DNA of 22,214 bases, from positions 1-22,214 of IMG/VR virus record IMGVR_UViG_3300028834_000005. One strand, written 5' to 3'. Origin of the DNA: a virus. Under the pieces are notes generated by a model, which saw only the letters and a list, made by a program, of their open reading frames with translations, was not told the DNA's origin and searched no databases. Positions 3,807 through 14,016 of the stretch are shown one piece after another (within the stretch, counting starts at the first letter, position 1; each line of letters begins with the position of its first letter). Made by a program: the position numbers and the translations under genes.

Positions 3807-4208
3807 ATGACTAAGAAACAAAAAGAGTATAAAAAGGTTCTTTTAAAGCTTGTGCATACTTCTAAAATGTATAAAGAGGTTTATTCGGAAGATAGAGAGC
3901 TTTGGGAAGAGTTTTTGAAGAGAAATTTCGGAGTAAAAAGCTCTAAAGATTTAAGTATTAACGAATTAGTAAGGTTAGTTGATTATTTGAATTATAAAAC
4001 TAGTGAGTTAAAAGAAAAAGCGACGATTAATCAAATAAAATATATGTGTTATCTTTGGGATAAAAAGGGTAAAATAAAAGGGGTTTTCGGATTAATAAAA
4101 TTTATAAGAGAGCGTATGAGATTTAGAGTATTAAAACTTAAAGATTTAACTAAAGAAGAGGCTACTAAAATAATTATAGCACTTGAGAAATTAAAGGAAA
4201 AAAAATGA
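3807..4208 (+). CDS. gemA: GemA / Mu gp16 family regulator (DUF1018)
   Basis: This 133-residue protein belongs to the family of Mu gp16 (GemA), an early protein linked to modulation of host gene expression and DNA topology. The N-terminal KKQKEYKKVLLKLVHTSKMY region, the central ELVRLVDYLNYK helix and the C-terminal ATINQIKYMCYLWDKKG section form the family layout. The start is ATG 3807 behind AAAGAGG. A longer form from a non-ATG codon at 3753 would begin inside the inverted repeat and adds a sequence without family match. The stop overlaps the next gene's ATG (ATGA), so translation is coupled. Confidence 0.82.
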   Translation: MTKKQKEYKKVLLKLVHTSKMYKEVYSEDRELWEEFLKRNFGVKSSKDLSINELVRLVDYLNYKTSELKEKATINQIKYMCYLWDKKGKIKGVFGLIKFIRERMRFRVLKLKDLTKEEATKIIIALEKLKEKK

Positions 4209-4405
4209 TTTGTCCTAAGTGTGCTTATAAAAAAACTAGGGTTTATGCTACAAGAAGCGGACTTGTTAATGAGAGATTTAGGGAGTGTCCTAAATGCGGA
4301 TATAAATTTTTAACAGTAGAGATAATAAAAGCGGATAAGGAAGCGGTGGAGTATAGGGAATATTTAAAAGAAATCGGGGAAATAGAAGAGGAAACAAAAA
4401 GATAA
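4205..4405 (+). CDS. Ogr/NrdR-like zinc-ribbon protein, possible late-gene activator
   Basis: This 66-residue protein has two CPxC pairs (CPKC at residues 3-6 and CPKCGYKF near 29-36), so it is a four-Cys zinc ribbon. The stretch between the pairs (YATRSGLVNERFRE) and the FLTVE end resemble the P2 Ogr/Delta late activators and the zinc ribbon of NrdR. Mu itself uses the helix-turn-helix proteins Mor and C, and neither is visible here. A zinc-ribbon activator at the end of the early operon is therefore a reasonable candidate for switching on the head and tail operons. This role is inferred from position and motif only. Confidence 0.6.
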   Translation: MICPKCAYKKTRVYATRSGLVNERFRECPKCGYKFLTVEIIKADKEAVEYREYLKEIGEIEEETKR

Positions 4406-4558: not shown

Positions 4559-4789
4559 ATGAAGATTATAAGCGATTCGGAAAATAAAGCGGTATATGAA
4601 ATGTATGAAGCTAATAAAGAGTTTTTTGCATCGGATAAAAGTGATAGAAATAGCTCGTCGGATATCTTTTTATTATTAGATAAGTTTTTAAGAAATGTTA
4701 ATGATGTTGAAGAGTTGGAGAAAATAGATTTACCAAAAGAGTATTTAGATAAAATAAATTTAGTTGAGGAAATGTTAAATGAGCTCTAG
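4559..4789 (+). CDS. Acidic hypothetical protein, 76 aa
   Basis: ATG 4559 has AAGGAG four bases upstream and its own extended -10 promoter. The product is acidic and helical (for example SDIFLLLDKFLRNVNDVEELEKI), with no membrane segment, Cys or recognised motif. It is the last gene before the convergent head operon. Its separate promoter suggests a moron-type gene, possibly expressed in the lysogen, or a regulator of late genes. I cannot name the family. Confidence 0.65.
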   Translation: MKIISDSENKAVYEMYEANKEFFASDKSDRNSSSDIFLLLDKFLRNVNDVEELEKIDLPKEYLDKINLVEEMLNEL

Positions 4790-4844
4790 AATTCCTGATG
4801 ATTTTTATATAAAAACTATCTATTATATTCAAAAAAGCTCTTAA
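4779..4844 (+). CDS. Very short overlapping ORF, 21 codons, doubtful
   Basis: ATG 4779 overlaps the last codons of the 76-aa gene, with GAGGA nine bases upstream. It encodes MSSRIPDDFYIKTIYYIQKSS and runs 29 bp into the 3' end of the convergent gpG-like gene. The first residues look like the beginning of a normal protein, so it may be the leftover 5' end of a gene cut when the head operon was placed here in reverse. It may equally be chance. Confidence 0.2.
   Translation: MSSRIPDDFYIKTIYYIQKSS
4802..4815. terminator. AT-only palindrome between convergent operons
   Basis: TTTTTATATAAAAA is a perfect 14-bp palindrome in the 26-bp gap between convergent gene ends, touching the stop of the gpG-like gene. 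It supplies a T-run on both strands but only a weak stem, so a two-way terminator is possible but not firmly shown. Confidence 0.25.
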
Positions 4845-5286
4845 TAACTTCTAAAATCTCATTTTCGGTTTCTTTCGGTAATTCTTGAGTATTCGGTTTT
4901 ATCGGTAAAAAAGGTCTTGCGGGAATTTTAGCGGTATGTGATTTGCCGGCCACTCCTCCGAACTGATGGATTGGGGCGTATTTTATATTTGTTCCTAAGA
5001 TGAGTTTATTATTTCGGATGGTAAAATCTATGCTTTCGGCTAGAGTTCCTCTATTTTGTAAGATTTTTTTATAACCTTTTTTTTCTTTTTGTCTTTTGGT
5101 AGTAGTTGTTAGAGGAGTCCATTTTTCACCGAAGAAGCTTTCGTTTTCAAAATTTTCTTCCACCTGCTCGATTAGTGTATAGCCTATTTGATTTAGGAGA
5201 GGTTTAATATCATTTATTTTGGAGGTAAGCTCGTTTAGCTTTTTTGTGACTTCATCTTTTATTTCGACTTTTATTTCAAAGCCCAT
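4816..5286 (-). CDS. Mu gpG-like virion morphogenesis protein
   Basis: This 156-residue protein is of the phage virion morphogenesis family (Mu G, P2 S-like), which acts in head-tail completion. Family features are the N-terminal helical part, ENESFFGEKWTPLTTTTKRQK (about residues 48-67), ILQNRGTLAESIDF, LGTNIKYAPIHQFGG (about 97-111) and the IPARPFLPI motif (about 121-129). It is the last gene of the head operon, and its start overlaps the end of the F-like gene by 11 bp. The start is ATG at 5286. Confidence 0.85.
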   Translation of the reverse strand: MGFEIKVEIKDEVTKKLNELTSKINDIKPLLNQIGYTLIEQVEENFENESFFGEKWTPLTTTTKRQKEKKGYKKILQNRGTLAESIDFTIRNNKLILGTNIKYAPIHQFGGVAGKSHTAKIPARPFLPIKPNTQELPKETENEILEVIKSFFEYNR

Positions 5287-6454
5287 TTTTATCCTTTTTA
5301 AAATACATTAAAATTCCCGCTCTGTGTTTATCAAAAGATTTCAAATTTTTCGATTTAAAAATTGTCAAATCAAAAGAGCCGTCTCTTAATAATCTGAGTA
5401 TAGTAATTATATTATCTTTTTTCGTTTTAAAAAATTTTATAAATTTGTATCTTTTTTTAATAACGCTACCGGATTTTTCTTTTACCGCCCAAATTTCATC
5501 AGGATTTGTTAAAGTCGGTAAAAAAAAGGCTAATTTTTCTTTATTGTATTTTATTATGTGTTTTATCATTTGTTCGTCTATTAAGACTTCAGTTATCGGG
5601 GTTTTTATAATATTTTTTTCTTTGCCGTTTAAGAGAGTTTTTTTTAGTATATTTATCGCTTCTTTTTTCGGTAAAATTTTCGGGGCATTATCAAACACTT
5701 TAAATTCACTTGCACTCGGGAGGTTAAAATCTTTATAATTTGCAGTAGCTTTTAGTTCTACATCTTTACTGCTAAACTTATCGAAAAACCTACCTTCTCT
5801 TACATCATAAGCCCAATCCGGCTCAACCGCATTTTTAGGAAGATTTGTTTTATCTGCGGGGGTTATTTTTTTATGTGCGGGAATTGCTCGAACTCTACAT
5901 CTGCAATTCCAACCGTTCGGGGGATAGTGTGTTTGCCAGAACGGGTCGTTTTTATCAAGAACGATGCCGTTTAATGCTTTATGAGACGGTCTTGTTTTGC
6001 TATCTAAAACAGCAATATATTTTAGGTATTTTACATTTTTATCCGTGTAATATTTTTTTGCTTTGGCGACTTGATAGGATACTCTTGCATTGGTATAAAA
6101 AATAGTTTTTAATCTTCTATTACCTACGAATATTTTTTTTGTTTGTCCGGTTTTAGGATCTTTAATCTCCACATCCGCCCACCATCCTTTTTTTATTAGA
6201 ATCGGTTCGAGTTGTTTTTTGAATGATTGATAGCTAAGTCCTTGCTTTTGGGCGTTTAGTATCGCTTCTTTTATATCACTTAATAAATCGAGCCTTGTTA
6301 TTTTTGCGACGGTAAAAGCTTTATGATGGGCTTCGTGCATCATTTCTTTATAATCGAATGTGAGTTTATAGCCTTTATGCTCTAAATATTTTATAGCGTC
6401 TTTCGGAGGTAGTTTAAAGCTTACGATGTGTGTTATGTCTTTAGCTAAACTCAT
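5276..6454 (-). CDS. Mu F-like head morphogenesis protein with C-terminal PBECR-type nuclease domain
   Basis: This 392-residue protein has two parts. Residues 1-about 230 are the SPP1 gp7/Mu F head morphogenesis domain: TNARVSYQVAKAKKYY (about 121-136), DSKTRPSHKALNG (151-163), and PPNGWNCRCRVRAI (178-191) with its two Cys. F-type proteins are minor head proteins near the portal. Residues about 260-392 look like a phage-Barnase-EndoU-ColicinE5/D-RelE-type (PBECR) RNase domain: an entry helix with EQMIKHIIKYN (295-304), TNPDEIWAVKEKSG (316-329), RYKFIKFF (335-342) and strands up to ILMYF (381-385). Such domains are known fused to head proteins and are thought to be toxin-like. The start shares an ATGA overlap with the portal stop. 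Confidence 0.88.
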   Translation of the reverse strand: MSLAKDITHIVSFKLPPKDAIKYLEHKGYKLTFDYKEMMHEAHHKAFTVAKITRLDLLSDIKEAILNAQKQGLSYQSFKKQLEPILIKKGWWADVEIKDPKTGQTKKIFVGNRRLKTIFYTNARVSYQVAKAKKYYTDKNVKYLKYIAVLDSKTRPSHKALNGIVLDKNDPFWQTHYPPNGWNCRCRVRAIPAHKKITPADKTNLPKNAVEPDWAYDVREGRFFDKFSSKDVELKATANYKDFNLPSASEFKVFDNAPKILPKKEAINILKKTLLNGKEKNIIKTPITEVLIDEQMIKHIIKYNKEKLAFFLPTLTNPDEIWAVKEKSGSVIKKRYKFIKFFKTKKDNIITILRLLRDGSFDLTIFKSKNLKSFDKHRAGILMYFKKDKNGL

Positions 6455-7791
6455 TCTTCAAATCCTAAAATCGAATTTGCAAAAATTATACTCTCAAGTG
6501 CTTGTTGTAATTTAGGATTATCAAAAGCTTCTATTTTTTGCAAAGCTTCTTCATAAGAGGAGCAATTGTTTAGTATTTTATAAACGATATTAAATTCTTC
6601 TTTAATATCGTTTAAATCGGTATTTATTAATTGTTCTTCTTGATATGTTAGGGGCTTGTTGAATTGAGAATTGAGAATTAATTGAGAATTATTTCGATAG
6701 GTTTTATTTTTTTTCTTAATAGGGATTTTTAATGTTTTTGAAATATACTCTTCATCCACTTCATATCCGGAATCGTTTAGAGTTTTTATTATTTGTGTTA
6801 ATTCTTTTTTATTAACTTCATTTTCAAATATAAATTCGAACTTAACTTCTTTAAAATTCGAATTTAGTTTAATGATTTTATTTAAAAATTTCGTTACTTC
6901 TTCTTGAATGAATTCCGCATCGGCTTTTATTTTTTCTCTTAATCTTTCGTTTGTGGTTTTACTAAGAGCGTATGAGCCTTGTTTTGAGCCGTCTGATGCT
7001 ATTCCTTGTCCTGTAATATAATGAGAGATTAAATTGTCAAAATAATTGATAAGAGATAAAAAATCGGCTTGATTTGAGACTTTTAGCGAATCAATTTCCA
7101 TATCTTTCGGGAATATTCCAAAGCTGTTGCTTTTTAGATTTGTTAGTTCCACTAAGAGTTCTTTTATATCTTCTTCATTATCGGCAGATGTTTTTACAAT
7201 TAGCGGCGGAATGGCAAGAGAGTCGAAATATTGCATATTTAGAGTAATTGCGGTATGTTTTAAAATTGCATAAAAGATTATTTTATATCCTAGATTTTCG
7301 TTATGAATTTTTTCGCTTCCGGTGTGATTGTAAAAGATTATGTTTTGAAGGGTTTTTAGGTAGATCCGTTTTGAGGTGTTTTTTTCTATAAAATAATACT
7401 CTTCTTTTAATTCGTCATATTTTAATGCAAGAGGAGAGATTTTTTTTAAACTCGGGTATAAATAATTATCCTTTATTTCAAAAGCCATATCGATAATTGA
7501 AAATCCGTAATATATCGCATCGCTTAGCATTTTTATAAGTCTTTTTATATTAAATTCTTTTAAAAATTTTTCTAAGAAAGGATTAGTGTTTTCGATTTTA
7601 TAATTAAGTGCGAGTATTCCGTCTCTTCTTTTATCCACACCTTCGGCTATTTTTAGATCTCTTGTTAAGAATAGATAATATAAATTCATAAGCTTTTCGA
7701 AATCATTAGTTGCAATTGCTTCTTTTACATCGTTTATCGTTATAAAATAGACCTCTTGTTGCGTTAAAAGACTTGGCAGATTGTATTTCAT
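6451..7791 (-). CDS. Mu gp29-like portal protein (DUF935)
   Basis: This 446-residue protein forms the DNA gate at one capsid vertex. Recognisable DUF935 stretches are the early VDKRRDGILALNYKI, the SDAIYYGFSIIDMAFE region, the helical LLVELTNLKSNSFGIFPKDMEI, and TGQGIASDGSKQGSYALSKT with the following helix. The start is ATG 7791 because the ribosome site AAAGGAG overlaps an alternative in-frame GTG at 7797. A linker near residue 370 (NNSQLILNSQFNKP) is encoded by copies of the GAGAATT heptad (6661-6690), an apparent repeat insertion in a coding region. The gene ends in ATGA with the F-like gene. Confidence 0.88.
   Translation of the reverse strand: MKYNLPSLLTQQEVYFITINDVKEAIATNDFEKLMNLYYLFLTRDLKIAEGVDKRRDGILALNYKIENTNPFLEKFLKEFNIKRLIKMLSDAIYYGFSIIDMAFEIKDNYLYPSLKKISPLALKYDELKEEYYFIEKNTSKRIYLKTLQNIIFYNHTGSEKIHNENLGYKIIFYAILKHTAITLNMQYFDSLAIPPLIVKTSADNEEDIKELLVELTNLKSNSFGIFPKDMEIDSLKVSNQADFLSLINYFDNLISHYITGQGIASDGSKQGSYALSKTTNERLREKIKADAEFIQEEVTKFLNKIIKLNSNFKEVKFEFIFENEVNKKELTQIIKTLNDSGYEVDEEYISKTLKIPIKKKNKTYRNNSQLILNSQFNKPLTYQEEQLINTDLNDIKEEFNIVYKILNNCSSYEEALQKIEAFDNPKLQQALESIIFANSILGFEE
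6661..6690 (+). repeat. GAGAATT heptads inside the portal coding sequence
   Basis: The plus strand reads GAATTGA GAATTGA GAATTA ATTGAGAATT, that is, rotated copies of GAGAATT, the unit of the array at 13487-13682. On the coding strand they translate in frame into an Asn/Ser/Gln/Leu-rich linker, so the reading frame is kept. Confidence 0.6.
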
Positions 7792-7811
7792 CTTCACTCC
7801 TTTAAAATATA

Positions 7812-7852
7812 CGTTTAAATTGCGTTTAAATTCGTTTAAATTCGTTTAAATA
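7812..7852 (-). repeat. Four CGTTTAAATT decamers in front of the portal gene
   Basis: CGTTTAAAT(T/A) occurs four times at about 10-bp spacing (7812, 7823, 7833, 7843; one extra G after the first) in the 90-bp gap between the large terminase and portal genes. This is the only sizeable gap inside the head operon. Each unit carries the palindrome TTTAAA and the phasing is about one helical turn. That would suit cooperative protein binding, or the units may simply be slippage repeats. Confidence 0.65.
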
Positions 7853-7881
7853 ATTTAAAAGGTATCTACATACTTAAAATA

Positions 7882-9339
7882 CTAAAAATCGTATTTAAAG
7901 CCTTTAAATGAAAAATTTTTAAGATGTTTTCTTACAAGCTTATAATCCACTCCCGCACTTATTTGAAATGCACGTTTTGCCATTTCGCTTGCATCAAGCA
8001 AATCGTCATGAGCGGATTTAGGGTATGTATCCAGCTCGTCTATTAAAAGGGATGCTTTTTTATCTATTAAGATAGTTTCATCTTTTATAAGGGGCGCTAG
8101 AGAATTTATTCTAAGTTCTTTCGGAATGTTGTTTTTAAACTCTTGAATACTAAGAGTAATTTCACTCTCTTTTGCGACTTTTTTTAAAACGTCTTTGAAA
8201 AACTCCTGATAAGCTACCGTTTCGATAGCAATTATAGTTCTTGCAATTTTCGAATATTTTATATATGTCTTAATGATTTTTTCAATCATATCGGTAGGAT
8301 TTTTTTTATATCCGAATGCCGTAAGATAAAATCTTTTTTCATCGGCTTTATAGCCTAAGGAGGCAATTGCAAAATAATCACCTTTTGTTTTGCCTAAAGC
8401 AGGGTCTATTCCTATAGAGTAAAAATCGCATTTAGGAGCACTCTCATATGTTTTATAATGCGGAAATGTCAGTGTTTCTTCGGATAAAGGGATATTTTGG
8501 TATTCTTGTAAAAAGGCTTCTTTATCTTCTTGATATTCTTTTTTAATTTCATTAACATCAAGTTCGCTATCATCAAGTTTGTATGTCGTAAAATCCAATA
8601 CAAGAGGAAAATTTTTGTAAAAATCGACTTCCTCTTTTAATCTTGCAAGAAGAGAATCGTGATGTAAAATTGTCCCTATTATGAGAATATTATAAAATTT
8701 TTTTCTGCTGGGTAATCTTTTTATTACCTTTTTATACCAATTGTATAGTTTGTCTCTTTGGGCTTTGTTTTGGACGTTTTCGTCATTTTCTATGTCATCA
8801 AGAATTATTAAATCCGGACGAAATGATAAAAATCTTTTTCCTCTGATTTTCGCCCCCGCACCGTATGCGGCGATTTTTACTAAAAAATCGTCTATTTTTA
8901 CGATAACTTCGGTAGTGAGAGATTTAATAACTTCTATATTGAAATCTTGTTTGAAAATTTCGTTTGATATTAACTCTTCATTTATTAAATCGAAAATATC
9001 TTTTGCTAAATTTTCACTACTTGAGATTATGATTATAAATCTTTTTTCTTTTTGGATTAGTTTCCATAATAGGAAAAGATTTGAAATTAGTGTTGTTTTA
9101 GCAGCACCTCTATATGCGGTTATTAATACTTCTTTATTTGTTTTTAAGATTTTATTTAATTCTTTATGGACGAATTTTCTAAAAATTGATGTTTCTTTTT
9201 TTGCAAATTCTATATGATGAGGAAAATAGCTTTTTATAAAATAAAAAAAGTCTTTTTTCGCTTTTTTCTTATCAATCGGGTCTTTTATGAGATTTGGTAG
9301 CTCTTTTAAATATAGCTTTAACTCCTGAATATCAATCAC
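7882..9339 (-). CDS. Terminase large subunit (Mu gp28-like)
   Basis: This 485-residue motor and nuclease cuts phage DNA and packs it into the head. The ATPase part has a Walker A-type AYRGAAKT (residues 75-82), Walker B LIILDD (177-182) and the coupling motif IIGTILHHDS (220-229). The nuclease part has the first Asp in GIDPALG (Asp312), IAIETVAYQ near 373 and the final HDDLLDA (Asp445/446/449). The start is a GTG at 9339 with AGGAG in front, overlapping the small-subunit stop by 8 bp. Length and motif order are normal for the family. Confidence 0.92.
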   Translation of the reverse strand: MIDIQELKLYLKELPNLIKDPIDKKKAKKDFFYFIKSYFPHHIEFAKKETSIFRKFVHKELNKILKTNKEVLITAYRGAAKTTLISNLFLLWKLIQKEKRFIIIISSSENLAKDIFDLINEELISNEIFKQDFNIEVIKSLTTEVIVKIDDFLVKIAAYGAGAKIRGKRFLSFRPDLIILDDIENDENVQNKAQRDKLYNWYKKVIKRLPSRKKFYNILIIGTILHHDSLLARLKEEVDFYKNFPLVLDFTTYKLDDSELDVNEIKKEYQEDKEAFLQEYQNIPLSEETLTFPHYKTYESAPKCDFYSIGIDPALGKTKGDYFAIASLGYKADEKRFYLTAFGYKKNPTDMIEKIIKTYIKYSKIARTIIAIETVAYQEFFKDVLKKVAKESEITLSIQEFKNNIPKELRINSLAPLIKDETILIDKKASLLIDELDTYPKSAHDDLLDASEMAKRAFQISAGVDYKLVRKHLKNFSFKGFKYDF

Positions 9340-9781
9340 TCACTTCTCCTATTATTTCATCTGCGTATTTACTTAAAAACTCCGCTAAGCTTTTATTTTG
9401 GGTTTTTAGAGCAAGAGAAGAGATTTTTAAAAGAGTGTTTTTTACAATTTCTTCTTTTTTTAGTTTTATTGTGTGTTTTGAATTTGCGTTTATGTTTTTT
9501 AGTTTATAGTATGTTTTCGTATATTTTTCTAAAAGTGTAAGCTTATTTGCAAGATCGCTTTGTTTTAACTCTGTTAATGCCTTATCCCATTCTTTAATAA
9601 GCTCTAATAAAAACTCTTTTTCTTTAGAATTTGCATCTATTACCTGCTCGGATAGTAATAATTCGTCCCATTTTTCTTTTTTCTTCCAATTACTAATTGT
9701 TTGTCGGCTTACACCCAAAATAGCCGCAATTTCTTTTAAAGAGAAGTTTTGTTTGTATAGTTCGTATGCTTTTTTATGCAT
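9332..9781 (-). CDS. Terminase small subunit-like HTH protein (Mu gp27-like)
   Basis: This 149-residue protein has an N-terminal helix-turn-helix: YKQNFSLKEIAAILGVSRQTISNWKKKEKW (residues about 8-37). A long helical region with repeated charged residues, suited to oligomerisation, follows. The large subunit follows directly with an 8-bp overlap. Small terminases bind phage DNA and start packaging. The call rests on the HTH and the gene order; sequence identity in this family is low. Confidence 0.75.
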   Translation of the reverse strand: MHKKAYELYKQNFSLKEIAAILGVSRQTISNWKKKEKWDELLLSEQVIDANSKEKEFLLELIKEWDKALTELKQSDLANKLTLLEKYTKTYYKLKNINANSKHTIKLKKEEIVKNTLLKISSLALKTQNKSLAEFLSKYADEIIGEVSD

Positions 9782-10133
9782 AATTTTCCTTTAAACTTTT
9801 TACATAATCTATGCTAAATTGCTCGTTTACTTTTATAGTTACATCGTATGTAACGAAAAATTTCCCAAGTTTTAAAGGTTTCATATCCACTACTTCAAAA
9901 TATTCATATTGAATTTTTAATAATTTATTTAAAAGCTCTCGGAGTGAGTTTAAATCATCTTGAGTTAGTTGATTTTTTATTATGTATATATGAAAAATAT
10001 AATCGACAAACTCAAAACGATTAGGTTTTATGTGAGAAAAAAATATATACTCTCCGGGAGTGTTGGGCTCTTTTGTAAGTAAAATAAACGGATGGATTTG
10101 TTTTAATTCATCTATTTTTTTCATTATATCCAT
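9774..10133 (-). CDS. Hypothetical structural protein, probable Mu gp37-like tail terminator
   Basis: This 119-residue protein has a mixed strand-helix pattern (PFILLTKEPNTPGEYIFFSHI, IFHIYIIKNQL, FFVTYDVTIKVNEQF). No diagnostic motif is visible. It follows the gp36-like gene and precedes the small terminase, each with short overlaps. In Mu the gene after gp36 is gp37 (DUF1834, tail completion/terminator), and the length and fold-like strand pattern agree. The assignment is mainly by position. Confidence 0.5.
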   Translation of the reverse strand: MDIMKKIDELKQIHPFILLTKEPNTPGEYIFFSHIKPNRFEFVDYIFHIYIIKNQLTQDDLNSLRELLNKLLKIQYEYFEVVDMKPLKLGKFFVTYDVTIKVNEQFSIDYVKSLKENYA

Positions 10134-10432
10134 ACATTCTCCCTTGTTGATACTTTAACTCTAAATTCCCCGCTATCGGTGATAATCGGAGCTTCTTTAA
10201 GTCTTTTTAAAGCCTCTTTATAGGCGTTTTGAATATTTTGCGGAACTTCAAGGTTTACACGAATAAAAACTCTATAAAGCGCAATATCTAAAATAAAAGG
10301 TTTTTGTAGTTTTTTTTCTTTTACTATCTCTTTCGTATCTTCAATTGCATTTTTTATTACATCATCACTAACATAATCCGGATTTGAAAGGATGGAGGAT
10401 AAAACCTCCTTAACGGATGATACTGCTATCAT
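10124..10432 (-). CDS. Mu gp36-like head completion protein (DUF1320 type)
   Basis: This 102-residue mainly helical protein contains the pattern seen in gp36/DUF1320 and related head-tail connectors: an N-terminal helix with NAIEDTKEIV, then LDIALYRVFIRVNLEVPQNIQNAYKEALKRLKEAPI (residues about 43-78). It shares an ATGA overlap with the capsid gene stop, as in the Mu T-gp36 order. It probably joins the capsid vertex to the neck. Confidence 0.65.
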   Translation of the reverse strand: MIAVSSVKEVLSSILSNPDYVSDDVIKNAIEDTKEIVKEKKLQKPFILDIALYRVFIRVNLEVPQNIQNAYKEALKRLKEAPIITDSGEFRVKVSTRENVWI

Positions 10433-11307
10433 TTACTATCCGGTGTTGATTTTGCTATAAGTTGCCATAAGCCGTATCCTGCATTGTGCTCCGCATCAAC
10501 TCCGTATCTGAATGCAGCTCTCATAAATACCGCCTCGTCATCCGGTTTATCCATTGCCGTGAATGTGATTGGTTTTGATATTTGTAAAATTAACGGTTTT
10601 ATCGGTTTTGTAGTATCCGTTAAATACCAACTTTTTTCATCCGTTAATTCCGAAGAAACTAAAATATCGGCCATGTTTTTTGTTATATTGGTAGTTCCGT
10701 CTATTTGATCCGATTTTAATATTTTTAGAGCTTTTTCTTCAAGTTGAGGCGGAATTACTAAGAGATTCGGTTTTATTTTTAAGTTTCTGTTGCTTTCACT
10801 TCTTATGCTCATAAGAAAAGCTCTTACTTTTAAGAAATTTTCTTGTGTTAAGTCTAAATTAAAAAGATTTGTGTAGGTTTTTTCTCCTAATTTATGCTCG
10901 CCGAAAAATTTTTTTCCATCATAACATATGTCGTTTTTTTCAAGCAGTCCGAAAACAAGTTCGTCATAATGCGTTTTTGCAGCTGCAGCCATTGATTGGA
11001 TTCTAGGTTTTACAACTCCTAGCGTATCATATATAATATGGTCTCTATCAATTTCAATAGTGGCTTCAAATCTTTTTTTAGTAATTGTGTATTTATAGGC
11101 TTTTAAGTCTTTTAATTCTCTATCACCTATCCACTCTCTCATATTAGGTATATCACCAAGCCAAGCATAATCAACACTAATTGCTTTTGCCTTTACAACC
11201 GTTGCAACTTTATCATAATTAGTCGGATACTCTTTAAAAACTCTATTAAACTCGTCTTTAAAGGCTTTTGAAATTGTTTTTAATGTTTGTGAATTTAACT
11301 GTGCCAT
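10429..11307 (-). CDS. Major capsid protein (Mu gpT-like)
   Basis: This 292-residue protein builds the icosahedral head. It carries the gpT family signature near the N-terminus, AWLGDIPNMREWIGDRELKDL (about residues 48-68), followed by YTITKKRFEATIEIDRD (73-89), the helix around RIQSMAAAAKTHYDELVFGLL (102-122), the LLVIPPQLEEKALKIL stretch and the final FMRAAFRYGVDAEHNAGYGLWQLI. The length is slightly below Mu gpT (305 aa). It follows the protease/scaffold gene directly, as in Mu. Confidence 0.93.
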   Translation of the reverse strand: MAQLNSQTLKTISKAFKDEFNRVFKEYPTNYDKVATVVKAKAISVDYAWLGDIPNMREWIGDRELKDLKAYKYTITKKRFEATIEIDRDHIIYDTLGVVKPRIQSMAAAAKTHYDELVFGLLEKNDICYDGKKFFGEHKLGEKTYTNLFNLDLTQENFLKVRAFLMSIRSESNRNLKIKPNLLVIPPQLEEKALKILKSDQIDGTTNITKNMADILVSSELTDEKSWYLTDTTKPIKPLILQISKPITFTAMDKPDDEAVFMRAAFRYGVDAEHNAGYGLWQLIAKSTPDSK

Positions 11308-11308
11308 A

Positions 11309-11629
11309 TTAATCCTCCCATCCTAATTCTTTTAGTAAATTGTTGTGATTGTTTTGTGTGTCTTGAAAATTGTTTTTTTGTGTAAATCCTAAAGGCTCTC
11401 TTGTTTCAAGATAGCTTTTTAGAGCATCTAAAGGCATAGCTTTTAAGGCTTCTTTTTCCGCCGGCAGGATTTTATTATCTTTAATTGCCGCATTTAAGTG
11501 AAACTCTTTTAAATCGGAGATTAGTTTTTTAATTTGCTCTTCTTTTTGGTTTAGCTCTTTTTGAAGTTTAGTGATTTGAGATTCTTTTTGGTTTATTTCT
11601 TTTTGAAGTTTAGTGATATCTTCTTTCAT
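11309..11629 (-). CDS. Nested Z-like head scaffold from an internal start
   Basis: Inside the protease gene and in the same frame, ATG at 11629 (residue 136 of the full protein) is preceded by a near-perfect AAAGGAGAG ribosome site at the usual spacing. Translation from here gives a 106-residue, coiled-coil, helical protein without the protease domain. This is the same design as Mu, where Z is made from within I. The strong internal site is seen directly; the scaffold role is by analogy. Confidence 0.7.
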   Translation of the reverse strand: MKEDITKLQKEINQKESQITKLQKELNQKEEQIKKLISDLKEFHLNAAIKDNKILPAEKEALKAMPLDALKSYLETREPLGFTQKNNFQDTQNNHNNLLKELGWED

Positions 11630-12034
11630 TTTCTCTCCTTTGTTTATTTCAAGCTCGAAATTAGGGTTATTTACTAATGCAACCGCTTCAATACTTTCAA
11701 CGTGCCTATTTTCCCCTACTATAAATTCCGGTGATAAATAGCGGTAGTTTTTGTTTTTGATTAACTCTTTTCCTTCTTCGTTAAGAGTTAAGCGTGCATA
11801 TACTCCGTCTTCTTTCAATTCTAAAGTGTTGACATCAAACCAACCGACAGCCGCACATCCTTTTTCGGTAAAGCAGTGCTCTATATTTAAAGGTAGATCC
11901 ACTCCTTTCGCTTTTGTTTTTGCAATTGTGTTTTCATCCACAATAAACACTCTCCCATCAAAGCCGGTTATAGTGCCTGCGGGTGAAATTTTTACGACCT
12001 CTTTGGCGTTGAATTCGATTCTTACGCTTCCCAT
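11309..12034 (-). CDS. Mu gpI-like prohead protease/scaffold
   Basis: This 241-residue protein has an N-terminal serine-type protease domain (residues 1-130) with His53 in LPLNIEHC, AAVGWFDV (61-68), DGVYARLTLNEEG (76-88) and Ser101 in YRYLSPEF. A scaffold half follows, whose coiled coil repeats ITKLQKEINQKE twice (140-163). In Mu the protease matures the head and the C-terminal half also exists as the separate scaffold Z. The same nested arrangement is visible here (see next entry). The start has AAGGAG four bases before the ATG. This is the first gene of the head operon. Confidence 0.9.
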   Translation of the reverse strand: MGSVRIEFNAKEVVKISPAGTITGFDGRVFIVDENTIAKTKAKGVDLPLNIEHCFTEKGCAAVGWFDVNTLELKEDGVYARLTLNEEGKELIKNKNYRYLSPEFIVGENRHVESIEAVALVNNPNFELEINKGEKMKEDITKLQKEINQKESQITKLQKELNQKEEQIKKLISDLKEFHLNAAIKDNKILPAEKEALKAMPLDALKSYLETREPLGFTQKNNFQDTQNNHNNLLKELGWED

Positions 12035-13055: not shown

Positions 13056-13488
13056 GAGAAAAATTAACAACATTGTCCAATTAGGCACGGTAACAGAGGT
13101 AAAAAGTGCTGATGGTTTAGCGCTTGCAAGAGTAAATGTTTTAGGTCGTGTTACAGACTTTTTACCTGTGTTTATGTGGGCGAATGATTTTGTAAAAGTG
13201 TGGATGCCTATAAGAGTAGGACAGCAGGTAGCGGTATTAAGTCCGTTTGGTAACGCAAATAGCGGAATAATACTTCCGAGTGTGTATAACAAATCTTGCA
13301 AAGAGCCAAGCGGGGCAAGTGATGGTAATGTAGTAATTGATTTTAGCGGCGGAGTTAGGATTGATAGTGACGGGGTTAATTTAAATATTTTTGCGCCCGG
13401 ATTTTTAAATATTGCCGCAAGCAGTGGGATTAATATAGCAAGCGGTGGAGAGATAAATATTAGAGGAAGCAGGATTAATCTTAATTGA
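13039..13488 (+). CDS. Baseplate assembly protein V / tail spike
   Basis: This 149-residue protein is of the gpV (Mu gp45) type, the central spike below the tail tube. The N-terminal OB-fold part is ARVNVLGRVTDFLPVFMW and MPIRVGQQVAVLSPFGN. A repetitive beta-helix spike follows (DGNVVIDFSGGVRIDSDGVN and NIAASSGINIASGGEINI). Either ATG 13039 or ATG 13042 could be the start; the latter has better spacing to AGGA. The stop codon TGA shares bases with the first unit of the heptad array. The spike tip is probably the PAAR protein encoded next. Confidence 0.87.
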   Translation: MMKELERKINNIVQLGTVTEVKSADGLALARVNVLGRVTDFLPVFMWANDFVKVWMPIRVGQQVAVLSPFGNANSGIILPSVYNKSCKEPSGASDGNVVIDFSGGVRIDSDGVNLNIFAPGFLNIAASSGINIASGGEINIRGSRINLN

Positions 13489-13682
13489 GAATTGAGAATG
13501 GAGAATGGAGAATTGAGAATTGAGAATGGAGAATTGAGAATGGAGAATGGAGAATGGAGAATTGAGAATGGAGAATTGAGAATTGAGAATGGAGAATGGA
13601 GAATTGAGAATTGAGAATGGAGAATTGAGAATGGAGAATGGAGAATGGAGAATTGAGAATGGAGAATGGAGAATTGAGAATT
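13487..13682 (+). repeat. 28 tandem GAGAATK heptads
   Basis: Twenty-eight uninterrupted 7-bp units, each exactly GAGAATT or GAGAATG, fill 196 bp between the spike stop and the PAAR gene. Writing T and G for the last base, the order is TGGTTGTGGGTG T TGGTTGTGGGTG GTT. Units 1-12 and 14-25 are therefore identical, an 84-bp duplication at a 91-bp shift. The plus strand is almost free of pyrimidines other than T. No coding role is likely: forward frames are closed by TGA, and the open reverse frame is an artefact of the repeat. Confidence 0.97.
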
Positions 13683-13725
13683 ATGGGGGGTTCGAAAAAT
13701 CAGGGTTTTGTATAAAGGGGAGAAA

Positions 13726-14016
13726 ATGAGTGCAATGACAAGAAAAGGCGATGCCTTAAGCGGACACGGATGTTGGGGCGGGCATGTAATAGCTGAGGGT
13801 AGTGGTAATGTTTTAGTAAACGGCATACCTGCCGCAAGGGCAAACGATAGCTCAACTCCTCATACCTGCCCCGCAATTCCAGAAACACACAGCGGGGTTA
13901 TGGTAGGAAGCAATAGCGTATATGTAAACGGAAGAAGCGCACAAAAGGTTGGTGACGGGGTAAGTTGCGGAAGCACTCAAGCAAGCGGTAGCAATAATGT
14001 ATTTATAGGCGGATGA
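13726..14016 (+). CDS. PAAR-domain spike tip protein
   Basis: This 96-residue protein forms the sharp metal-bound cone at the end of the tail spike. PAAR features are the start MTRKGDALSGHG, the motif NGIPAARANDS (about residues 37-47) that gives the family its name, THSGVMVGSNSVYVNGRSAQKVGD (about 59-82) and the closing GSNNVFIGG. Several His and Cys (CWGG, HTCP, VSCG) suit metal binding. The start chosen is ATG 13726 behind GGGGAG rather than an in-frame TTG 18 bases earlier. GC content is higher than in neighbouring genes because of the many Gly/Ala codons. Confidence 0.92.
   Translation: MSAMTRKGDALSGHGCWGGHVIAEGSGNVLVNGIPAARANDSSTPHTCPAIPETHSGVMVGSNSVYVNGRSAQKVGDGVSCGSTQASGSNNVFIGG

What the first reader, a model, noticed from the sequence alone, without database searches (positions are those of the whole stretch)
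5276..6070. Toxin-like PBECR nuclease domain fused to the head morphogenesis protein
Residues about 260-392 of the F-like protein match the layout of PBECR RNase domains, part of the Barnase/EndoU/colicin E5-D/RelE group. Fusion to a structural protein that sits near the portal would let the particle carry a nuclease into the next host, where it could attack host RNA or competing phages. The DNA-packaging machine, the portal and this domain are encoded next to each other.
Basis: partly seen in the sequence, partly recalled or inferred. Interest (0 to 1): 0.6.

Follow-up and report, generated by a model that had tools for sequence, protein, structure and literature searches.

The report
Phage head protein carrying PBECR2 domain
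A Mu-like bacterial virus makes a head protein whose far end is a recognisable relative of a phage RNA-cutting domain, an arrangement already described in 2017, but this copy has lost the arginine that nearly all its relatives keep at the predicted active site, so it may well be a weakened or dead enzyme rather than a toxin.

Summary
The 392-aa F-like protein (5276-6454, minus strand) has a Phage_Mu_F domain (E 1e-21) and a C-terminal PBECR2 domain (PF18810, E 3.2e-14; codons 5303-5623). Terminase, portal, F and G are adjacent. The architecture is published: Iyer 2017 describes MuF-PBECR fusions, Mu gp30 included; Jamet 2017 describes MuF toxins. It is common: PBECR2 passes the cut-off in 68 of 397 Campylobacteria genomes, 13 checked as MuF fusions.

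The 'toxin' part is only partly supported. The domain model (pLDDT 87) has the expected helix-plus-strands layout with Thr364 in strand 4, but Foldseek finds no significant match. The helix Arg kept by 43 of 44 other copies (His in one) is missing here through a 4-codon gap. There is no immunity gene: F overlaps G by 11 bp. The C-terminal module is gained or lost repeatedly across F proteins. Best reading: a MuF-PBECR2 head protein, probably weakened or inactive in this phage. Virion presence, injection and RNase activity are untested.

The parts
5276..6454 (-). F-like minor head protein, 392 aa (MuF + linker + PBECR2)
   Evidence: Pfam PF04233 and PF18810 above cut-off; PHROG 220 'minor head protein and DNA pilot' E 7.7e-68
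5891..6277 (-). Phage_Mu_F (MuF / SPP1 gp7) domain, residues 60-188
   Evidence: PF04233 E 1e-21; TIGR01641 E 9.6e-17
5717..5824 (-). Probable flexible linker, residues about 211-246
   Evidence: pLDDT below 50 for 211-215 and 221-246 in the full-length model
5303..5623 (-). PBECR2 domain, residues 278-384
   Evidence: PF18810 E 3.2e-14, 3.5e-17 in its own record; domain model of residues 246-392 pLDDT 87.2, pTM 0.83
5558..5560 (-). His299 in the helix that precedes the strands; kept in 11 of 28 MuF-fused copies
5531..5536 (-). K307/L308: junction of the 4-codon gap (as aligned) that removes the near-invariant helix Arg
   Evidence: alignments with 44 other PBECR2 copies; codons
5363..5365 (-). 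Thr364 in strand 4, the S/T position of the BECR active-site pattern
   Evidence: pattern from PMC5512222
5321..5323 (-). Arg378, conserved in 24 of 28 MuF-fused copies
4816..5286 (-). G-like tail completion/virion morphogenesis protein, overlaps F by 11 bp
   Evidence: TIGR01635 E 4.3e-16, PHROG 26 E 6.3e-29
6451..7797 (-). Portal protein (Mu gpH-like), overlaps F by 4 bp
   Evidence: PHROG 113 E 7.5e-49
7882..9339 (-). Terminase large subunit
   Evidence: PHROG 38 E 7.4e-88
9332..9781 (-). Small terminase-like helix-turn-helix protein
   Evidence: several terminase small subunit/DNA-binding PHROGs

Best explanation
This is the F (gp30-like) minor head protein of a Mu-like transposable phage. 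The N-terminal MuF domain is expected to sit at the portal inside the head; a flexible linker joins it to a C-terminal PBECR2 domain. In relatives with the full active-site pattern this module is best seen as a metal-independent RNase carried in the particle and delivered with the DNA. In this phage the helix arginine has been lost in a small in-frame gap while the rest of the domain is kept, so the copy is more likely weakened or catalytically inactive and kept for folding, portal-side structure or RNA binding, as Iyer et al. proposed for Mu's own inactive domain. Shown: domain content, gene context, predicted layout, absence of the Arg, absence of an immunity ORF, repeated gain/loss of the module. 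Inferred: virion location, delivery, RNase activity of relatives, weakness of this copy.
For: Pfam/NCBIfam/PHROG matches. Mu-like gene set: DDE integrase core, MuB-like ATPase, Gam, GemA, portal, terminase, capsid. Domain model pLDDT 87.2 with long helix, four strands, helix and strand; Thr364 in strand 4. Low-confidence linker 221-246. Arg column: Arg in 27/28 MuF-fused and 16/17 other copies, one His, window none; the DNA shows a clean in-frame 4-codon difference from the closest relative L046. C-terminal domain 52% identical to L046 against 76% for residues 1-255, dN/dS about 0.31: relaxed but not free drift. No ORF of 50 aa or more between F and G here and in 17 of the 19 PBECR2-type loci in which G was found, this one included. 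Literature for MuF-PBECR fusions and an inactive domain in Mu gp30.
Against: His299, Thr364 and Arg378 are kept, and Lys307 lies about one helical turn from where the Arg would be, so activity could remain. Purifying selection on the domain seems to persist. The BECR fold itself rests on Pfam/Iyer and on the order of elements; Foldseek gave no PDB or BFVD match with E below 0.001. dS between window and L046 is high, so the dN/dS values are rough.
Confidence: 0.5

Rival explanations
1. The domain is an active RNase that uses His299, Thr364 and a lysine in place of the Arg; one or a few copies enter the cell with the phage DNA and cut host, defence or rival-phage RNA.
For: PBECR2 match well above cut-off; His299 and Thr364 follow the helix-His plus strand-4 S/T pattern reported for five PBECR families; domain still seems to be under purifying selection.
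Against: The near-invariant helix Arg is missing. No experimental activity of any PBECR2 protein turned up in the papers searched.
Confidence: 0.3
2. The C-terminal module is purely structural or a folding aid for the head-portal complex, in all these phages, and never acts as an enzyme.
For: Many Mu-like phages carry F with other or no C-terminal modules; Mu's own C-terminal domain is described as inactive.
Against: A module that is repeatedly gained and lost, and is also found in very large proteins with the Arg and Ser kept, looks like an enzyme cassette rather than a scaffold.
Confidence: 0.16
3. It is a MuF polymorphic toxin with a cognate immunity protein, used by lysogens against non-lysogens.
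For: MuF plus nuclease-type C-terminus in a temperate phage (definition).
Against: F overlaps G by 11 bp, with no small ORF between; G is the conserved tail-completion gene. The 76-aa ORF at 4559-4789 lies beyond G on the other strand and has no family match.
Confidence: 0.04

Closest known systems
MuF-PBECR fusions of phages (Iyer et al. 2017, PMC5512222; Pfam PF04233 + PF18810)
   Same: Same two domains in the same order, next to the portal gene in a Mu-like phage; PBECR2 above the Pfam cut-off.
   Different: This copy lacks the helix Arg kept by 43 of the 44 other PBECR2 copies aligned here (the remaining one has His).
Mu gp30 (gpF)
   Same: Orthologous N-terminal domain (45% identity over residues 14-195) and same place between portal and G.
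   Different: Mu's C-terminus scores as MuF_C (below cut-off, E 0.00036), not PBECR2; profile comparison of that type with PBECR2 is only marginal (E 0.02 for one comparison).
MuF polymorphic toxins (Jamet et al. 2017, PMC5576092)
   Same: MuF head protein with a nuclease-type C-terminus in a temperate phage.
   Different: No small immunity ORF downstream; the toxins are mainly in Firmicutes, this phage is of a Campylobacterota type.
F protein of L046 (IMGVR_UViG_2654587899_000001, same as L016 in genome G129)
   Same: Closest relative, 68% identity over the whole protein, same architecture.
   Different: Keeps the Arg (HSIEDNKDNR) and has a 76-aa zinc-ribbon-like ORF between F and G.

Membership tests
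Phage_Mu_F / SPP1 gp7 (MuF) | PF04233 or TIGR01641 above curated cut-off | tested here: met
   78.2 bits vs 29.6; 61.3 vs 39.65
Phage_Mu_F / SPP1 gp7 (MuF) | Gene directly downstream of the portal gene | tested here: met
   Portal 6451-7797 overlaps F by 4 bp
PBECR2 (PF18810) | Profile match above gathering score | tested here: met
   53.6 bits vs 27.1; all 15 members of A4 match at E up to 0.01
[quoted passage not shown]
   AlphaFold2 model, pLDDT 87.2: H49-58, H60-71, E75-83, E86-98, E103-110, E116-123, H126-132, E136-140
PBECR2 (PF18810) | S/T in strand 4 | tested here: met
   Thr364 = domain residue 119 in E116-123
PBECR2 (PF18810), as an active enzyme | Arg (or His) at the conserved helix position | tested here: not met
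   Arg in 27/28 MuF-fused and 16/17 other copies, one His; gap in window. Counted from PDEIW, the position holds Asn304 here and His299 is five residues away.
[quoted passage not shown]
   No Foldseek match with E below 0.001 in PDB or BFVD; no profile match in PDB sequences; element order agrees
[quoted passage not shown]
   Needs bench work
MuF polymorphic toxin | MuF plus toxin-type C-terminal domain in a temperate phage | tested here: met
MuF polymorphic toxin | Small downstream ORF as immunity gene | tested here: not met
   F-G overlap of 11 bp, no ORF between
Injected virion effector | Present in particles and delivered to the cell | not testable with these tools
   Inferred from MuF homology and literature

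The most novel reading that the evidence does not exclude
In Mu-like phages the C-terminus of the portal-side head protein is a readily exchanged slot for delivered RNA-acting modules that need no immunity gene, because the producing cell lyses and the recipient gets only a few copies; the window's copy is a natural variant in which the helix arginine has been lost while the rest of the module stays under selection, pointing to a second, non-catalytic job such as RNA binding.
Probability: 0.2. Interest if true: 0.45.

Novelty: new member of a known kind. Interest (0 to 1): 0.22.

Why it matters
If relatives are active, MuF-PBECR2 proteins would be RNases delivered by the particle itself, before any phage gene is expressed, and without the immunity gene that toxin models call for. 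The pair window/L046 (68% identical, one without and one with the conserved Arg) would make a natural test of which residue the PBECR2 active site needs. For this particular phage the finding is otherwise ordinary: a known domain fusion, widespread in Campylobacteria.

Tried and rejected
Immunity gene: searched the F-G interval here and in relatives; none here, and in most relatives none; the 76-aa ORF at 4559-4789 has no Pfam or PADLOC match and lies past G on the other strand. Close protein relatives of the domain alone: tblastn of residues 255-392 in 50,697 phage records found nothing at E 0.01, so only profile search shows the kinship there. Solved-structure relatives by sequence and fold: none significant. 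Homology of PBECR2 and the Mu-type C-terminus by profile comparison: right place, but only E 0.02 for a single comparison, not taken as shown. Full-length structure model: mean pLDDT 65.5, not used for fold search. Assembly error as the cause of the 4-codon gap: unlikely, as L002 has the identical protein, though both contigs may come from one population. PADLOC: no match for F. Relatives of the window's host could not be drawn because the window is a virus record; the class survey was centred on a Sulfurospirillaceae MAG that holds a related F.

Full report
What is in the sequence. The ORF 5276-6454 on the minus strand encodes 392 aa. Pfam finds Phage_Mu_F at residues 60-188 (E 1e-21) and PBECR2 at residues 278-384 (E 3.2e-14, 53.6 bits against a cut-off of 27.1). 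The PBECR2 codons are 5303-5623.

Context. On the same strand lie, in order, protease/scaffold 11309-12034, major head protein 10429-11307, two small genes, small terminase-like protein 9332-9781, TerL 7882-9339, portal 6451-7797, F, and G 4816-5286. The plus strand holds a DDE integrase-core protein, a MuB-like ATPase (AAA-type by NCBIfam, placed by position), Gam, a lysozyme-like protein and GemA. This is a Mu-like transposable phage; the record is 22,214 bases and probably partial (the transposase ORF begins at the left edge), with no host genome attached. Related F proteins are in Helicobacter, Campylobacter and Sulfurospirillaceae prophages or phages, so the host is probably in Campylobacterota (inference). 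A second contig, L002, is the same phage at 99.99%.

Known or not. Iyer et al. 2017 (PMC5512222) named the PBECR domains, described the fusion to MuF and portal domains as their simplest architecture, reported a PBECR-type C-terminus in Mu gp30, judged that one inactive, and predicted RNase activity for its orthologues. Jamet et al. 2017 (PMC5576092) described MuF toxins of temperate phages, with small downstream ORFs as likely immunity genes. So the arrangement is known. A survey of 397 genomes of the class around a Sulfurospirillaceae MAG gave PBECR2 above cut-off in 68; 13 of the best matches are in MuF-sized frames and align with F over the MuF domain as well.

Structure. The domain (residues 246-392), modelled with 14 relatives, reaches pLDDT 87.2 and pTM 0.83: helix, hairpin, long helix 49-71, four strands, helix, strand. 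This fits the helix-plus-four-or-five-strands core stated for BECR domains, and Thr364 falls in the fourth strand. However, Foldseek found no match with E below 0.001 in the PDB or in predicted viral structures, and a profile search of PDB sequences found nothing significant. The fold name is therefore compatible with, not shown by, these data. In the full-length model residues 221-246 are of very low confidence, suggesting a flexible linker.

Active site. Across 28 MuF-fused PBECR2 proteins, an Arg in the long helix is present in 27; the exception is the window. Adding 17 copies from other, mostly very large proteins, Arg is present in 16 and His in one (a few of these rows are near-copies). 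Iyer et al. state that five PBECR families have a helix His and the sixth an Arg at the same place; that PBECR2 is the Arg family is my inference from these counts. The window reads KHIIKYNKEKLAFFLPTLTNPDEI where L046 reads RHSIEDNKDNREVYAKYLLPTLTKPDEI: four codons fewer, in frame. Wherever the gap is placed, no Arg or His comes to the conserved position; Lys307 is the nearest basic residue that could stand in. His299, Thr364 and Arg378 remain. Between window and L046 the C-terminal domain is 52% identical and the rest 76%, with dN/dS about 0.31 and about 0.08; dS is high, so these are rough. The domain has thus changed faster than the rest but does not seem to drift freely.

Immunity. F and G overlap by 11 bp. 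Of 19 PBECR2-type loci in which G was found, 17 (this one included) have no ORF of 50 aa or more between F and G. This fails the immunity-gene mark of MuF polymorphic toxins. It does not exclude an injected enzyme, since virion-borne enzymes of the T4 Alt type need no immunity gene (general knowledge).

Exchange of the C-terminus. On a tree of the MuF part of 89 F proteins, PBECR2, other C-termini and short forms need 19 changes in all; PBECR2 alone needs nine, of which strongly supported branches force two. L058 (other C-terminus) and L060 (PBECR2) are close neighbours. The sample was chosen by similarity, so counts are not frequencies. Mu-type C-termini and PBECR2 align in the expected place by profile comparison, but only at E 0.02.

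Verdict. Observation confirmed; interpretation partly supported. Best reading: a MuF-PBECR2 head protein of a known kind, in which the nuclease-like domain is more likely weakened or inactive than a working toxin (about 0.5), with an active RNase as main rival (about 0.3). Delivery, virion presence and enzyme activity remain inference.

Noticed in passing
window 13483-13681: 28 copies of a 7-bp tandem repeat (AATGGAG) between a baseplate-like gene and a PAAR gene; it makes a spurious long ORF on the minus strand.
   Followed up: no
window 13708-14016: Small PAAR-motif protein (PF05488, E 1.3e-12), likely the tail spike tip.
   Followed up: no
window 4205-4405: 66-aa protein with an NrdR-type zinc ribbon only (PF22811, E 3.6e-9), without the rest of NrdR.
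   Followed up: no
window 4816-12034: Protease and major head genes lie upstream of the terminase-portal-F-G block, whereas in Mu they follow G.
   Followed up: partly
L006 5321-6100; also a 259-aa ORF in L059: A Helicobacter prophage with another F C-terminus carries a PAPS-reductase-type gene (PF01507, E 7.2e-10) between F and G; L059 has an ORF of the same length there.
   Followed up: no
L016 2028-2258 (L046): 76-aa ORF with two CxxC pairs between F and G in the closest relative; looks like a zinc ribbon, perhaps Com-like; not tested.
   Followed up: no
window about 4197 versus L002: The only difference between the two contigs over 12.55 kb is one base in an A/T run near the end of the GemA-like ORF.
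   Followed up: partly
L017-L020, L023, L025-L031, L053: A second group of MuF-PBECR2 proteins keeps the helix Arg (often followed by His) but lacks the upstream His299 position.
   Followed up: partly
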